IMG/VR virus record: IMGVR_UViG_3300027793_000082
Coordinates: 1 to 64,000 of that record
DNA from: a virus
DNA length: 64,000 bases
Strand: one strand, 5' to 3'
The notes below the pieces were generated by a model. That model was not told the origin of the DNA, ran no database searches, and was given only the letters and a program-made list of their open reading frames with translations. Positions 4,019 to 13,050 of this stretch are shown here, in pieces. Both the position numbers and the translations under genes were made by a program. Numbering within the stretch: position 1 is the first letter of the stretch; every line of letters starts with the position of its first letter.

Positions 4019-4509
4019 TTATGAGCTCCATACAATCTGCTTGACGGTCCAGCCATCCAGCGCAAGCTGTCTTGCATTTGGCTACCTGAAAAAACACGCT
4101 CACTAACCACAAATTCAGGCCAAGCCAAGTGCACTAGGGAGGCATCTTCCTTGGAACTGCACCACACTTGGATGCCAAGATTTCCATAGTTGTTTTCAGT
4201 TGGATGCTCCCTACTGTTGGGATCGGGCCGGTACTTGAGAAAGTAAGGTTGCAAAAGAATGTTGCCCAGTTGGCTACACCACACCAAAAGGTCAGTATCA
4301 CTCACACATTGGCTCTGCCCATACATCCACCCCAGCACCACTCTAGTCCAAGGACCTTGACCGTTGACGTTGGAAACTTCAGAGCACAGTTGGTTGAGCT
4401 CAAGGCTGCTGGGCAAACCTCCTTGGTAGTATCCTGCCCAGCGCCTAGTCCACCTGTCAGCAAACTCTTGCGGACTTTCCCTTTCCAACGAGGTTACACC
4501 TTTCCCCAA
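4015..4509 (-). CDS. hypothetical protein
   Basis: A soluble protein of up to 164 residues, rich in Trp (ten) and Ser, with no motif I recognise. Its start overlaps the end of the upstream basic protein by 16 nt. The first available codon is TTG at 4509 without a clear Shine-Dalgarno; another TTG seven codons later has AAAGG 10 nt upstream, so the N-terminus is uncertain. It belongs to the leftward early operon that begins at 5417 and its stop is coupled to the small membrane protein. Confidence 0.55.
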   Translation of the reverse strand: MGKGVTSLERESPQEFADRWTRRWAGYYQGGLPSSLELNQLCSEVSNVNGQGPWTRVVLGWMYGQSQCVSDTDLLVWCSQLGNILLQPYFLKYRPDPNSREHPTENNYGNLGIQVWCSSKEDASLVHLAWPEFVVSERVFSGSQMQDSLRWMAGPSSRLYGAHK

Positions 4510-5417
4510 AAAGCTTTCACAACGCTCTTGCCGCGTGCATTGTTGAGTCCCAGCTTCTTGATCACAATCTCCACCATCTCTGCCTCGTTGACCTTGCTCT
4601 TGTTTTCCCGGATCAGCTCGCGCACCTGAGAAGCAATGCTGAGTCCACTGCTGGGCTTGTTGGGCTTGGAAGTAAGGCTGCTGCTGGACTTCTTGGCCTT
4701 GACCTTCAGCTTCTTGCCCTTGAGAAGCACTTCCTTGTTTGGAAGCTTTTCCTTGCGAGGCTGCTTTGGAGCAAGACCGCTGCTCAGAGCCCGCACAATT
4801 GCCTTAAGTGGCTTTTCCCAGTGCCGGATCAGCTTGTCGCTCTGTGCCTCAGCAAGAGCCTCAGCGTAGTGTGCCTGCAAGCGGGGCAGCACCTTGGGTA
4901 CCCCATACTTGGATACAATCTTCGCAACTTCCTGGGGCATATCGCCCAAATCCATTTTGCCCTTCAGCACCAAGGTTTTGAGGTTGTCTATCCGAGCGTA
5001 GCAGGCCACATAAGCCTCAATGAGACGCCCTGAAGAGGTCTGAGCCAACTGGTCCATCCCGCCTTCTGTGTCCACCCGCTTGGCCTGCACCAAACCGTTG
5101 TCGATGTAGGTGTGGCTCCTGGGGCTAAGCTGAGCTCCGCGATTAAGGCAGTAAGCAATCTTGCCCATGGTCTGCTGCACCCCAAAGGGCACGTTCTTGA
5201 CCAAGCCAGCATCATGTGCACGACCAGCCTGCGTGAGATAAGCTTGCGCTTCCCGCACCAGGTCATCGGGCTCAACAGCCTGGTGTACCCAGTTCAGTGC
5301 CAGACCATACCGCACATTAAAGTCTGGTGCAGTGTAGTCCAGGGTGCTGAAATCTGGAGTGCTCTTGCTGTGCAAGATCTCTTGCAGCTTAGCGTCAGTG
5401 CGTGTCAGGCGAGCCAT
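4494..5417 (-). CDS. hypothetical protein with basic C-terminus, first gene of early operon
   Basis: A 307-residue protein. Residues ~1-210 look globular and mainly helical. Residues ~215-265 are a Lys/Ser/Pro-rich linker (KKLKVKAKKSSSS), followed by a small C-terminal helical module ending GLNNARGKSVVKAFWGKV, which could bind nucleic acid. No family is recognised. The ATG has AGGAG 8 nt upstream and lies directly behind a strong -35/-10 promoter, making this the first gene of the early leftward operon. An early DNA- or RNA-binding role is inference. Confidence 0.62.
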   Translation of the reverse strand: MARLTRTDAKLQEILHSKSTPDFSTLDYTAPDFNVRYGLALNWVHQAVEPDDLVREAQAYLTQAGRAHDAGLVKNVPFGVQQTMGKIAYCLNRGAQLSPRSHTYIDNGLVQAKRVDTEGGMDQLAQTSSGRLIEAYVACYARIDNLKTLVLKGKMDLGDMPQEVAKIVSKYGVPKVLPRLQAHYAEALAEAQSDKLIRHWEKPLKAIVRALSSGLAPKQPRKEKLPNKEVLLKGKKLKVKAKKSSSSLTSKPNKPSSGLSIASQVRELIRENKSKVNEAEMVEIVIKKLGLNNARGKSVVKAFWGKV

Positions 5418-5444: not shown

Positions 5445-5473
5445 ATCATACAGCTACCCTTCACATGTGTCAA
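5445..5473 (-). promoter_or_regulatory. strong sigma70-type promoter of the early operon
   Basis: On the minus strand, TTGACA (5468-5473), a 17-nt spacer and TATGAT (5445-5450). It is followed by a leader with AGGAG and CCCAAATG at the start of the 5417 gene. This is the best match to the host housekeeping consensus in the window. Confidence 0.85.
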
Positions 5474-5508: not shown

Positions 5509-5537
5509 GGTCTTGGGTTGCATTGCAACCCAAGACC
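5509..5537. terminator. perfect 13-bp hairpin between pstS end and early promoter
   Basis: The arms GGTCTTGGGTTGC and GCAACCCAAGACC surround a 3-nt loop, just downstream of the pstS stop. No T-tract follows on the minus strand (the A8 tract there is a T8 tract before the hairpin on the plus strand). It may stop transcription poorly or act as a 3'-end stabiliser for pstS mRNA. Confidence 0.55.
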
Positions 5538-5550
5538 GCTTAGACACAGC

Positions 5551-6582
5551 TTACTTCCAAACAGGAGTCCCATCAGGAGCTTTAACCTCACTTGCCCATA
5601 CTTGTCGGATCCGAGTTTTCACCTCAGCTGGCACTGGTACATAGTCCAGCCGCTCAGCTATCTCGTCCCCATGTGAGAAAGCCCAGTCAAAAAACCGCAT
5701 GGTTGTGAGGCTTGTGGCAGGATTCTTGGGATCACGTGGGAGCAAGATGAAGGTTGGACTGACGATGGGCCATGTGTCCTTTCCAGGTTGATCTATGAGG
5801 TTGACAGCAAAATTGGGCACATTCCAGTTGGCTGCGGCTGCTGTTGCCTCAAAAGCTTTGTGGTTGGGACGCACCCAATGTCCGTCCTTGTTCCGAATTT
5901 GCGTTGTCACCAATCCAGCTTGTTGGGCATATGCATTCTCCACATAGCCGATGGCGCCGCGAAGCTGACGCACACTGGCACTTACACCTTCATTCCCTCG
6001 TGCACCTGTGCCAATGGGCCACTTTACACTGGTACCGGTACCAACTCTAGAGCGCCATTCCTCGCTTACTGCTGAGAGATAGCTGGCCCACACATAGGTT
6101 GTGCCACTGCCATCTGCCCGATACACAACAGCTATCGCTAAATTGGGAAGGCGCAGCGTGGGGTTAAGCTCTACAATTCGTTGGTCATTCCATTTTACAA
6201 TCTTGCCAAGATATATGTCAGCCAAGACTTGGCCAGTTAGCCTCAGCTGATCCCTTTCCAGTCCCGGAACATGCACAGCCGCTACCAAACTGCCCATCGC
6301 AGCAGGAAATTGGAGCAGGTTGTTTTTCTCAAGGTCTTCTTGTTTCATTGGAGCATCACTTGCACCAAAGTCCACTGTGCGGTTTCTTATTTGGTTTTGA
6401 CCAGCCCCACTTCCCACACTTTGATAGTTGAGTTGAATTCCAGTTTTTTTGGCTTCTTCCCCCCATTTCTGATACAACGGATTGGGAAATGTTGCCCCAG
6501 CCCCGTTGATAGGTTGTGCCATAACTGATGCAGTAGAGCTTATTACAAGCACCGCAGCAGCCAGCAATGTTTTTAGATACAT
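5551..6582 (-). CDS. pstS: PstS phosphate-binding protein of the ABC phosphate transporter
   Basis: A 343-residue periplasmic phosphate-binding protein that would feed the host PstCAB transporter. A signal peptide (MYLKTLLAAAVLVISSTASV, then MAQ) precedes the mature start QPINGAGATFPNPLY. Typical PstS features are GSGAGQNQI, FGASDAPM, the phosphate-binding ADGSGTTYVW and GNEGVSASV. I chose the ATG at 6582 because AAGGA lies 8 nt upstream and the signal peptide begins there; longer in-frame starts add a non-secretory extension. No pstC, pstA or pstB is nearby. Phage-encoded PstS is known in aquatic phages as an aid under phosphate limitation. A Pho box lies upstream, at 6660-6677. Confidence 0.95.
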   Translation of the reverse strand: MYLKTLLAAAVLVISSTASVMAQPINGAGATFPNPLYQKWGEEAKKTGIQLNYQSVGSGAGQNQIRNRTVDFGASDAPMKQEDLEKNNLLQFPAAMGSLVAAVHVPGLERDQLRLTGQVLADIYLGKIVKWNDQRIVELNPTLRLPNLAIAVVYRADGSGTTYVWASYLSAVSEEWRSRVGTGTSVKWPIGTGARGNEGVSASVRQLRGAIGYVENAYAQQAGLVTTQIRNKDGHWVRPNHKAFEATAAAANWNVPNFAVNLIDQPGKDTWPIVSPTFILLPRDPKNPATSLTTMRFFDWAFSHGDEIAERLDYVPVPAEVKTRIRQVWASEVKAPDGTPVWK

Positions 6583-6659
6583 TATTATTCCTTTCATATC
6601 CATATTGGCACTGTAATTTTGCCTGATTTTCAAATAACGTGCAAGAGCACTAGCCACTT

Positions 6660-6677
6660 TTAACAGAAGCGTAACAG
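6660..6677 (-). promoter_or_regulatory. Pho box (PhoB-type operator) upstream of pstS
   Basis: The minus strand reads CTGTTAC-GCTT-CTGTTAA: two 7-mers in tandem with a 4-nt spacer, 11-bp periodicity as in the enterobacterial Pho box (CTGTCAT repeats). It lies 78 nt upstream of the pstS ATG. A convincing -10 is not evident; TAGTGC about 8 nt downstream of the box is a weak candidate. Confidence 0.65.
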
Positions 6678-6709: not shown

Positions 6710-6717
6710 CCTAAATA
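6710..6717 (+). promoter_or_regulatory. late-type promoter element CCTAAATA
   Basis: It resembles the T4 late promoter TATAAATA (6 of 8), placed 20 nt before the ATG of the neck protein gene at the head of the rightward tail-completion block. Confidence 0.5.
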
Positions 6718-6737: not shown

Positions 6738-7832
6738 ATGCCACCGTTAACTTTTTGGAATGGCGTTGGTGCAAAGAACAAGGACTATAAGTTCTTTGAT
6801 AGAATGGCCGCGCAATACATCAATATGGGCTCAACAGAATTTTATCTCCACAAATATCTTGGCCCAACCAATCCTGATCCCAAAACAGTGACACCTGACA
6901 CGGACGAAACCAACCTGCTGAACATTTCAGACTTGGTAAACTTGGAAATCCGTGACAGAAAGTATGACAGCGATGTCTACAGTATAAAAGGACACTATTT
7001 GGTTACGGATACTGAGTTTGATCTCAAACAGTTTGGATTTTTTCTCAGCACTGACACTGTGTTCATCACATTCCACATCAACCAAATGGTAACCCAACTG
7101 GGACGACGCATCATGAGCGGTGATGTTATAGAGGTGCTGCACATGCGAGATGACACAGCACTGGATGGTCGCCCCATCAACAAGTTTTATGTTGTGCAAG
7201 AAGGCACTCGCCCAGCAGAGGGATTCAGTCCCACTTGGTGGCCACATCTCTGGCGCGTGAAATGTCAACCTTTGACTGATAGCCAGGAGTTCCAAGACAT
7301 TTTGAACAAAGAGTTGGAAGACAGAGGAGACGGTATCGTTCCAGAGCCCAATCCCGACGGGAGCATGCCAACACTTGGACAAGTAAACAGCACTTATGAC
7401 AAAGAAATAAGCATCAACGACGCAGTGTTGGAAGAGGCTACAGCCAACGTGGCTTTCAGAAACTGGCAAAGCACACATTTTTACATATTGGAAGAGGATT
7501 TGGACAAGCCCATCAGTGTTTACAACTCCGATGGCATTCCGCCAAACCAAAGCAAGCCAGTGCCGTCAGGCACCAGTTTTCCCAGCGTCTACAAGGAGGG
7601 TGACTACTTTCTCCGAATGGACTACTTGCCCCCAGTGCTATACAAACGCGAAGGAATCAAATGGAAAAGACTAGAAACCAACTATCGTGCACCCTGGCTG
7701 CCTGCCAATCGTGTTTTGACAACATTTATTAACAACAGCAATAAAACCACTTATCCCGATGGCACCACTGTTGACGAACGTCAAAACTTGCGCACTACAA
7801 TAAAACCCAAACTTGATCCAGATATTATATAA
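6738..7832 (+). CDS. neck protein, gp14-like
   Basis: A 364-residue virion protein. The central part (residues ~75-190) with LEIRDRKYDSDVYSIKG, TFHINQMVTQLGRRIMSGD and the WWPHLWRVKCQPL strand pattern resembles T4 gp14, the neck protein that joins capsid and tail. T4 gp14 is about 256 residues, so this one has extensions, including a C-terminal tail after residue ~220. The start has AAGGA 6 nt upstream. It is followed by an endolysin gene and then by a gp15-like gene, so this block encodes head completion and tail completion functions. The gp14 assignment is moderate, from pattern resemblance and position. Confidence 0.6.
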   Translation: MPPLTFWNGVGAKNKDYKFFDRMAAQYINMGSTEFYLHKYLGPTNPDPKTVTPDTDETNLLNISDLVNLEIRDRKYDSDVYSIKGHYLVTDTEFDLKQFGFFLSTDTVFITFHINQMVTQLGRRIMSGDVIEVLHMRDDTALDGRPINKFYVVQEGTRPAEGFSPTWWPHLWRVKCQPLTDSQEFQDILNKELEDRGDGIVPEPNPDGSMPTLGQVNSTYDKEISINDAVLEEATANVAFRNWQSTHFYILEEDLDKPISVYNSDGIPPNQSKPVPSGTSFPSVYKEGDYFLRMDYLPPVLYKREGIKWKRLETNYRAPWLPANRVLTTFINNSNKTTYPDGTTVDERQNLRTTIKPKLDPDII

Positions 7833-11934: not shown

Positions 11935-11964
11935 AGCTGAGACTGGTGCTCAGCTCTCCTTTTA
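11935..11964 (+). terminator. intrinsic terminator after the 11015 gene
   Basis: The arms AGCTGAG (11935-11941) and CTCAGCT (11949-11955) enclose a 7-nt loop, followed by CTCCTTTT. It lies between two convergent genes and overlaps the last bases of the opposing FkbM gene. Confidence 0.65.
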
Positions 11965-13050
11965 TGAGAAGATATCACTCAAGGGGTTTTGATATTGATA
12001 AAACACTTGAAAGAACTTTTCAGTATAAACTACTGATCCTTCCATTTGAGTATAAACCTTGTTGGTTCGGCTGGGCTGTAATATTTCACCTTCGTTGGGA
12101 ATTTTGGCCAGCTTCTGTTGCTCAACATTACTGAGATGAAACCAAGGCACTTGATCTTTCCAAAAAGCCACTTTGCCGCTCTTGCTCAACTGTTGTTGAT
12201 ATACCTTATATAAGTTGATGCTGTCTACATCAGTGGGCAAGCTACTCCGGGGAACAGCAAACAAGTCATTTACACCTGCCAAGATGCTGTTGCTGGCCAA
12301 GCTGCTGGCAATAATGCTAGTTTCATCTAAAATATGATGATGGCTGCTGCTAAGCGGCACATAATCCTGCTCCAAGAACCAATTGATTACCTTACAAACT
12401 TTCTGTATTTCTTGTGGATTTGCATGGTTGCATTCAAAAAACACCCATGGTTGATCTTGCTTGATTCTCCCTTGGGCACCTTTCAAAACATCCAGCTCGT
12501 GTCCTTCCACATCCACTTTCATGAGTTTGACTTGGGGAAAATCAAAACTGTCAATACTCACAGTTTTCACTGTTCTGTTACCACCAGTGCCCACAATGTG
12601 ACTGGTGCCAGTTTGTTTGGGATTGTATTGAAAACTGATTTCTCCGTTTTGCTCACTCACTGCATTATTGAAAATCTGATAAATGTTTTCTTTGCCTTCA
12701 TAACTCCGCATGATGCATTCACAATTTTCTTGAATGGGCTCAAACATGATTGTGGAACTCACAAACCCCTGGCTCAAAAACTCCCAACTGGCTACACCAT
12801 AGTTTGCCCCAATGTCCAAGAGCAAGCCATCGCCCTCTAAGCCTTGAGCTTGCCAGCTTTTCCACCATTTTTTGAACAACCAATTGTTGTTTTGTAACCG
12901 TAGCTTGCTGCTCCAGAAGTCAGCCTTGTTCATATGCAGATTCAAGCCATTGTAAGGCAAGACTTCAGTTTGCAGATCAGGCAGTCGTTCCATAAAAATT
13001 TTCCCAGAGGCTATTGCCATGAGTTTTGTATGTTTGGGGCTGCCTGTCAA
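11962..13050 (-). CDS. FkbM family SAM-dependent methyltransferase
   Basis: A protein of up to 362 residues. The FkbM O-methyltransferase fold is clear: motif I GLLLDIGANYGVASWEF near residue 77, acidic FEPIQEN, then TVSIDSFDFPQVKLMKVDVEGHELDVLKGA. The C-terminal ~120 residues are unique. The open frame begins with a TTG at 13050; the first ATG is at 13020 and neither has a good Shine-Dalgarno. It may methylate a sugar or another small moiety on a glycan. A second FkbM protein is at 59252-59965. It has its own promoter (13115-13142). Confidence 0.82.
   Translation of the reverse strand: MTGSPKHTKLMAIASGKIFMERLPDLQTEVLPYNGLNLHMNKADFWSSKLRLQNNNWLFKKWWKSWQAQGLEGDGLLLDIGANYGVASWEFLSQGFVSSTIMFEPIQENCECIMRSYEGKENIYQIFNNAVSEQNGEISFQYNPKQTGTSHIVGTGGNRTVKTVSIDSFDFPQVKLMKVDVEGHELDVLKGAQGRIKQDQPWVFFECNHANPQEIQKVCKVINWFLEQDYVPLSSSHHHILDETSIIASSLASNSILAGVNDLFAVPRSSLPTDVDSINLYKVYQQQLSKSGKVAFWKDQVPWFHLSNVEQQKLAKIPNEGEILQPSRTNKVYTQMEGSVVYTEKFFQVFYQYQNPLSDIFS

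What the first reader, a model, noticed from the sequence alone, without database searches (positions are those of the whole stretch)
6582..6677. Phage pstS carries a host-type Pho box
CTGTTAC-GCTT-CTGTTAA in tandem, 78 nt before the pstS start, has the 7+4+7 geometry of the proteobacterial PhoB site. It would let the host phosphate sensor switch on the phage gene during infection of starved cells. Regulation of this kind is known for cyanophage pstS, where the site is the cyanobacterial form; the form here points to a proteobacterial host.
Basis: partly seen in the sequence, partly recalled or inferred. Interest (0 to 1): 0.75.

Follow-up and report, generated by a model that had tools for sequence, protein, structure and literature searches.

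The report
Phosphate-starvation switch before phage pstS
A very large phage of uncultivated, probably alphaproteobacterial, hosts carries a phosphate-scavenging gene (pstS) behind a conserved DNA element that looks like the host's phosphate-starvation switch, and unrelated phages outside the cyanobacteria carry the same kind of switch, so phages may read the host's own hunger signal more widely than known.

Summary
The element is real. CTGTTAC-GCTT-CTGTTAA lies at 6677..6660 on the minus strand, 77 nt before the pstS ATG, and nowhere else in the 69-kb contig. The contig is a fragment of a jumbo T4-like phage whose nearest cultured kin infect Sinorhizobium and Agrobacterium.

By position-weight matrix the box is only fair: rank 13 of 127,966 with an E. 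coli half-site matrix, rank 240 or worse with stricter ones. The stronger evidence is comparative. Five divergent pstS+ relatives keep a 7+4+7 box (N-TRTTAC-RNTY-STRTKAA) while the flanks diverged (0 of 1000 shuffles as good). Eighteen relatives without pstS lack it. A TTG (-35-like) follows 14-15 nt downstream.

A wider survey supports the PhoB reading. Among 36 non-redundant viral, non-cyanobacterial pstS promoters, 16 have TGTNA pairs exactly 11 nt apart (shuffle mean 0.24, maximum 3). Some use the same TGTTAC form. Viral pstS of proteobacterial type entered phages at least five times.

Best reading: a PhoB-type activator site upstream of a weak sigma-70 promoter, activated by host PhoR-PhoB. 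Binding and induction are untested. The TTA core differs from the TCA of sampled host promoters, so "host-type" is only partly supported.

The parts
5551..6582 (-). pstS, periplasmic phosphate-binding protein (343 aa, Sec-type signal peptide ending AMA-like VMA/QP)
   Evidence: NCBIfam NF008171 and TIGR00975 above cut-off; Pfam PBP_like_2 1.4e-33; PDB PstS hits at 1e-100 or better; all Pi-binding residues kept; signal peptide read by eye
6660..6677 (-). Pho-box-like element CTGTTAC-GCTT-CTGTTAA
   Evidence: conserved as N-TRTTAC-RNTY-STRTKAA in five divergent variants
6671..6677 (-). half-site 1, CTGTTAC
6660..6666 (-). half-site 2, CTGTTAA
6639..6644 (-). -35-like TTGCAC, 15 nt downstream of the box
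   Evidence: read: TTG at 15 nt in four variants and 14 nt in the fifth; inference that it is a -35
6616..6621 (-). -10-like CAAAAT, 17 nt after the -35-like hexamer
   Evidence: CAAAAT, CAGTAT, CAAACT, CACAAT at the same place in four variants; inference
6589..6595 (-). ribosome-binding site GAAAGGA of pstS
   Evidence: GAAAGGA(A) kept in four of five variants
6712..6717 (+). TAAATA core of a T4-type late promoter for the divergent structural gene
   Evidence: present before the orthologous gene in all 18 pstS-less relatives tested
6738..7832 (+). divergent virion structural protein
   Evidence: phrog_11591 6.4e-95; 44.7% to Agrobacterium phage Atu_ph07, 42.9% to Sinorhizobium phage Phosso
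5510..5536 (-). 12-bp perfect hairpin after pstS, followed by an A-run (no U-run on the pstS strand)
   Evidence: role unknown, possibly separates pstS from the next gene
5445..5473 (-). TTGACA-N17-TATGAT, strong sigma-70-type promoter of the next gene (4494-5417)
   Evidence: suggests that pstS is its own transcription unit

Best explanation
The element is the binding site of a phosphate-starvation response regulator of the PhoB kind, encoded by the host. In a phosphate-starved cell, phosphorylated PhoB would bind the two 11-nt repeats side by side, about 60 bp upstream of the transcription start, and recruit the host's sigma-70 RNA polymerase to a weak core promoter (TTGCAC-N17-CAAAAT). The phage PstS would then be made, exported to the periplasm, and feed phosphate to the host's own PstCAB channel while the phage makes DNA. 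Shown here: the site, its conservation, its occurrence with pstS and absence without it, and an intact phosphate-binding protein. Inferred: that PhoB is the protein that binds, that binding activates, the start site, and the benefit to the phage.
For: Conserved 18-mer in five divergent pstS+ variants against diverged flanks: 0.783 against a shuffle maximum of 0.606; anchored identity outside the box is 0.32. Box to ATG distance 72-78 nt in all five. Eighteen relatives with the same divergent gene but no pstS keep that gene's late promoter; 17 have no sense-strand box-like pair and one has a lone match that looks like chance inside coding sequence. The box occurs once in the window, and the looser TTAM-N7-TTAA pattern also only here. 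Across 36 non-redundant viral pstS promoters of proteobacterial type, TGTNA pairs stand at exactly 11 nt in 16; shuffle mean 0.24, maximum 3; every other spacing tested up to 35 nt gives 3 or fewer. The same TGTTAC form, in two to four repeats of 11 nt, precedes pstS in phages with a different PstS lineage: L249, L267, L242 and L248. E. coli phnC has C-to-T at the same place in both halves (CTGTTAGTCACTTTTAAT). Pho boxes are defined as two 11-nt direct repeats of 7+4, with a consensus that varies between species (PMC4415409), and in S. meliloti most lie upstream of the promoter (PMC3131613).
Against: No binding or expression data. Full-length matrices score the box poorly, and some orthologous variants (GTATTACAGTCGTATTAA) very poorly. 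None of the five variants has the C of TGTCA in either half. The host is unknown, so its own pst promoter could not be compared; no sampled bacterial pst promoter has the T/T form. The box lies 14-15 nt upstream of the -35-like element, not over it as in E. coli. The window's relatives share ancestry, so the five variants are not five independent gains.
Confidence: 0.74

Rival explanations
1. The element binds another host regulator of the same OmpR/PhoB fold with an 11-nt repeat, most obviously the alphaproteobacterial cell-cycle regulator CtrA (TTAA-N7-TTAA, known to me, not tested), so that pstS would follow the cell cycle rather than phosphate.
For: The invariant core is TTAC-N7-TTAA in four of five variants, and the phage's likely hosts are alphaproteobacteria.
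Against: TTAM-N7-TTAA occurs only once in the 64-kb window, against 3.8 expected, so there is no CtrA-like set of sites. The conserved letters include T-R before each TTA, which a CtrA site does not ask for. One variant reads TGAA in the second half. The site travels with a phosphate gene.
Confidence: 0.1
2. The element is a phage-specific promoter part, for example the site of a phage-encoded middle-gene activator, and has nothing to do with the host's phosphate sensor.
For: T4-like phages do have activator-dependent middle promoters (established knowledge of MotA). The conserved -35-like and -10-like elements would fit an activated promoter.
Against: The box is unique in the window, and in the 328-kb relative only the pstS site matches exactly; the two further one-mismatch hits are no more than the pattern read backwards gives. 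A phage regulator should have several targets. Similar boxes stand before pstS in phages with other PstS lineages.
Confidence: 0.1
3. Chance or a non-functional relic carried in with pstS from the bacterial donor.
For: Poor full-length matrix score. The nearest bacterial pstS genes do have Pho boxes, in another form.
Against: The box is kept while neighbouring bases have turned over; 0 of 1000 shuffles reach the observed conservation. A relic of the Acetobacteraceae box would keep TGTCAT-N5-CTTCAT, which it does not.
Confidence: 0.05

Closest known systems
PhoB control of pstS in cyanophages (P-SSM2; S-PM2d genes shown by gel shift, PMC10976474)
   Same: A phage auxiliary gene for phosphate uptake with a host Pho box in front, in a T4-like phage.
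   Different: Cyanobacterial box form (PyTTAAPyPyT/A) and cyanobacterial PstS (about 36% to the window's). Here: jumbo phage, PstS of alphaproteobacterial type, TRTTAC/STRTTAA repeats with 7+4+7 spacing. Binding is shown for the cyanophage, not here.
Proteobacterial Pho box (E. coli phoA, phoB, pstS, phnC; Acetobacteraceae pstS)
   Same: Two 7-nt direct repeats separated by 4 nt, on the coding strand, shortly before pstS.
   Different: TTA instead of TCA in both halves; box ends 14-15 nt before a -35-like hexamer instead of replacing it.
Pho-box promoters of other uncultivated phages found here (L231, L266, L273, L269, L249, L267 groups)
   Same: Non-cyanobacterial phages, pstS of proteobacterial type without pstCAB beside it, 11-nt repeats before pstS.
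   Different: Mostly TGTAAY or TGTCAY; box followed after 10 nt by TTAAATA; often with a phosphate porin or a metallophosphoesterase-glycosyltransferase pair nearby, none of which the window has.

Membership tests
Pho box (PhoB-type operator) | Two direct repeats of 11 nt (7 conserved + 4 less conserved) | tested here: met
   CTGTTAC-GCTT-CTGTTAA; 7+4+7 kept in five variants
Pho box (PhoB-type operator) | Match to the CTGTCAT consensus / score of known sites | tested here: inconclusive
   Half-site matrix rank 13 of 127,966, full matrices rank 240 and 590; consensus is known to vary between species
Pho box (PhoB-type operator) | Located in the promoter of a phosphate-regulated gene, coding-strand orientation | tested here: met
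   77 nt before pstS, sense strand; lost where pstS is absent
Pho box (PhoB-type operator) | Overlaps or replaces the -35 element, about 10 nt before the -10 | tested here: not met
   Box lies 14-15 nt before a TTG -35-like element. This is the E. coli layout; in S. meliloti most Pho boxes lie upstream of the promoter, so it is not a defining feature of all PhoB sites
Pho box (PhoB-type operator) | Binds phosphorylated PhoB | not testable with these tools
   needs gel shift or footprint
PstS (phosphate ABC transporter substrate-binding protein) | Family model above curated cut-off and Pi-binding residues | tested here: met
   NF008171, TIGR00975; T10 F11 S38 D56 R135 S139 G140 T141 all kept
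CtrA site | TTAA-N7-TTAA, several per genome region under CtrA control | tested here: not met
   one TTAM-N7-TTAA in 64 kb against 3.8 expected, and it reads TTAC in the first half
Jumbo T4-like phage (Phosso / Atu_ph07 neighbourhood) | gp23-type major capsid protein closest to that group | tested here: met
   77% to Phosso; Pfam Gp23 7.1e-97; relative on a 328-kb contig

The most novel reading that the evidence does not exclude
Outside the cyanobacteria, phages repeatedly took pstS from different proteobacteria and placed it under Pho boxes whose letters follow the host group, and some built small phage-borne Pho regulons: pstS plus a phosphate-selective porin plus a metallophosphoesterase-glycosyltransferase pair that resembles the plcP-agt lipid-remodelling pair, with a composite promoter of Pho box, 10 nt and a late-type TTAAATA. 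The window is a divergent, TTA-core member in jumbo phages of alphaproteobacteria.
Probability: 0.5. Interest if true: 0.78.

Novelty: new variant of a known kind. Interest (0 to 1): 0.62.

Why it matters
Phage capture of a host nutrient switch is demonstrated only for cyanophages in the literature I could search. Here the same logic appears in phages of heterotrophic bacteria, in several PstS lineages, with box letters that differ between groups. If PhoB binds, phages of heterotrophs adjust phosphate uptake to the state of the cell, and the box becomes a sequence clue to the regulator, and perhaps the host, of uncultivated phages. It also gives a direct test of how far PhoB specificity can drift (TCA, TAA, TTA, TGA cores).

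Tried and rejected
Position-weight matrices alone: too weak and too dependent on the training set to decide. Comparison with the nearest bacterial pstS promoters: strong TGTCAT boxes there, but no T/T form, so they do not identify the host. A chain from the box to genes downstream of pstS: rejected, since the next gene has its own TTGACA-N17-TATGAT promoter and a hairpin lies between. A second target in the window before the FkbM gene: a one-mismatch site exists in the 328-kb relative, but the window has no 11-nt pair there. CtrA: see rivals. tRNAs for host inference: none. A first composite-promoter search used a wrong spacing and found nothing; repeated with the right one. Contigs L224 and L225 have pstCAB beside pstS and were left out as possibly bacterial. 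L017-L020 and L021 pstS loci have no clear box in 220-250 nt upstream, so not every viral pstS has one.

Full report
What is there. The window is most of a 68,958-base IMG/VR virus record. Its major capsid protein is a Gp23 with 77% identity to that of Sinorhizobium phage Phosso (469 kb). The gene divergent from pstS is a virion structural protein nearest to Agrobacterium phage Atu_ph07 and Phosso. A close relative lies on a 328-kb contig that also has gp23. The window is thus a fragment of a jumbo T4-like phage. pstS is at 5551-6582 on the minus strand. The box CTGTTAC-GCTT-CTGTTAA is at 6677..6660 on the same strand, 77 nt before the ATG, and occurs once in the contig.

Is PstS functional? 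It passes two NCBIfam PstS equivalogs, matches solved PstS structures at E 1e-100 or better, keeps the eight Pi-binding residues (residue list from my own knowledge of E. coli PstS), and is under purifying selection, with dN/dS 0.03-0.09 where dS is measurable.

Is the box more than chance? By matrix, barely. By comparison, yes. Five distinct pstS+ variants carry CTGTTACGCTTCTGTTAA, GTATTACGGTTCTGTTAA, GTATTACAGTCGTATTAA, TTGTTACAGTTGTATTAA and ATGTTACAATTCTGTGAA. The PstS proteins range from 63 to 90% identity with the window's. The box is the best conserved 18-mer between the genes, and 0 of 1000 dinucleotide shuffles come near it. In 18 relatives with the same divergent gene but no pstS, that gene's TAAATA late promoter is present in all, and a sense-strand pair of box halves in only one, which looks like chance. 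The closest of these, L078-L080, have a different gene in the place of pstS. These variants share a common phage ancestor, so they show retention, not repeated gain.

The promoter. A TTG hexamer starts 33 nt after the start of the box in four variants and 32 in the fifth; 17 nt further comes CAAAAT, CAGTAT, CAAACT or CACAAT. I read these as -35 and -10 of a weak sigma-70 promoter; this is inference. The next gene downstream has its own strong TTGACA-N17-TATGAT and a hairpin separates it from pstS, so the box probably serves pstS alone.

Is it PhoB's site? Pho boxes are defined as two 11-nt direct repeats of 7+4 whose consensus varies between species (PMC4415409). The geometry, orientation and gene fit. 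The letters fit less well: every half-site in the window family lacks the C of TGTCA. Among sampled bacterial pst promoters with a strict pair, 17 are C/C, 2 A/A, 2 C/T, 1 C/G, 1 A/C and none T/T. To see whether viral Pho boxes vary at this letter, I collected 80 viral pstS relatives. After removing close duplicates, the window family and contigs with pstCAB, 36 promoters remained; 16 have TGTNA pairs exactly 11 nt apart, shuffle mean 0.24, maximum 3, and no other spacing exceeds 3. Their fifth letter is A, C, T or G. L249 and L267 have TGTTAC-type repeats, four units of 11 nt each; L242 and L248 have TGTTACAGTTCTATTT, close to the window family's TGTTACAGTTGTATTA. With the T form alone, 7 of 41 promoters match at period 11 against a shuffle mean of 0.17, maximum 2; four of the seven are the window's family.

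Where did pstS come from? In a tree of 81 PstS sequences, viral copies fall in several places; starred branches force at least five changes for the other phages. The window family lies in a well-supported set with Acetobacteraceae and other alphaproteobacteria (99*), its nearest bacterial row being a Rhodospirillales MAG (66% identity). L085, the fifth variant, is not firmly placed with the other four. The tree used the quick method without bootstrap, and no named host follows from it.

Known before? [quoted passage not shown] In 2010 pstS was among genes found in cyanophages and absent from the non-cyanobacterial T4-like genomes compared (PMC3037559). A survey of terrestrial phages lists pstS, mostly from marine and freshwater viruses, and cites PhoB control for cyanophages only (PMC10987575). 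I found no report of a proteobacterial-type Pho box before a phage pstS in the held library; subscription papers are not held, so this is not proof of novelty.

Verdict.

A side result deserves its own study. In several of the other viral contigs the same composite (Pho box, 10 nt, TTAAATA) also stands directly before a metallophosphoesterase followed by a glycosyltransferase. Nine of twelve best bacterial homologues of the former have the latter next to them on the same strand, as expected of the plcP-agt pair that replaces phospholipids under phosphate limitation (PMC9804370; PMC4796936 listed). A phosphate-selective porin (PF07396) follows pstS in many of them. Four of the thirteen larger records searched, besides the window's relative, have gp23; for the others phage origin rests on IMG/VR.

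Noticed in passing
L231, L266, L236, L230, L268 (G305:72041, G307:43712, G313:28339, G315:129697, G308:69489): Composite promoter TGTNAY-N5-TGTNAY-N10-TTAAATA directly before a metallophosphoesterase (LpxH/PlcP-like) gene, usually followed by a glycosyltransferase: a possible phage-borne plcP-agt lipid-remodelling pair under a Pho box. The G308 site has one mismatch.
   Followed up: partly
L228:3536-4942, L231:3594-5009 and about 20 further contigs: Phosphate-selective porin O/P (PF07396, 1e-40 to 1e-54) directly downstream of viral pstS.
   Followed up: partly
L300 and L301 (G315:132399, G313:30272): One-mismatch composite sites before a 215-aa repetitive protein of unknown function, next to pstS.
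   Followed up: no
window 64000 bases: TAAATA occurs 20 times on both strands and mostly stands within 60 nt before large ORFs: the likely late promoter core of this phage.
   Followed up: partly
window 5510-5536: Perfect 12-bp hairpin after pstS followed by an A-run rather than a T-run on the pstS strand; not a standard terminator.
   Followed up: no
phage records MG065691, MG065686 (Campylobacter phages A11a, A18a): Carry a PstS 49-52% identical to the queries and close to no other cultured phage; unannotated, could be host DNA in the assembly.
   Followed up: no
L249 and L267 upstream of pstS: Four consecutive 11-nt repeats (TTGTTAC/CTGTTTC), longer arrays than in the window.
   Followed up: partly
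window 11962-13050 and 232-1467: FkbM-type methyltransferase and Eco57I-like adenine methyltransferase genes near pstS.
   Followed up: no
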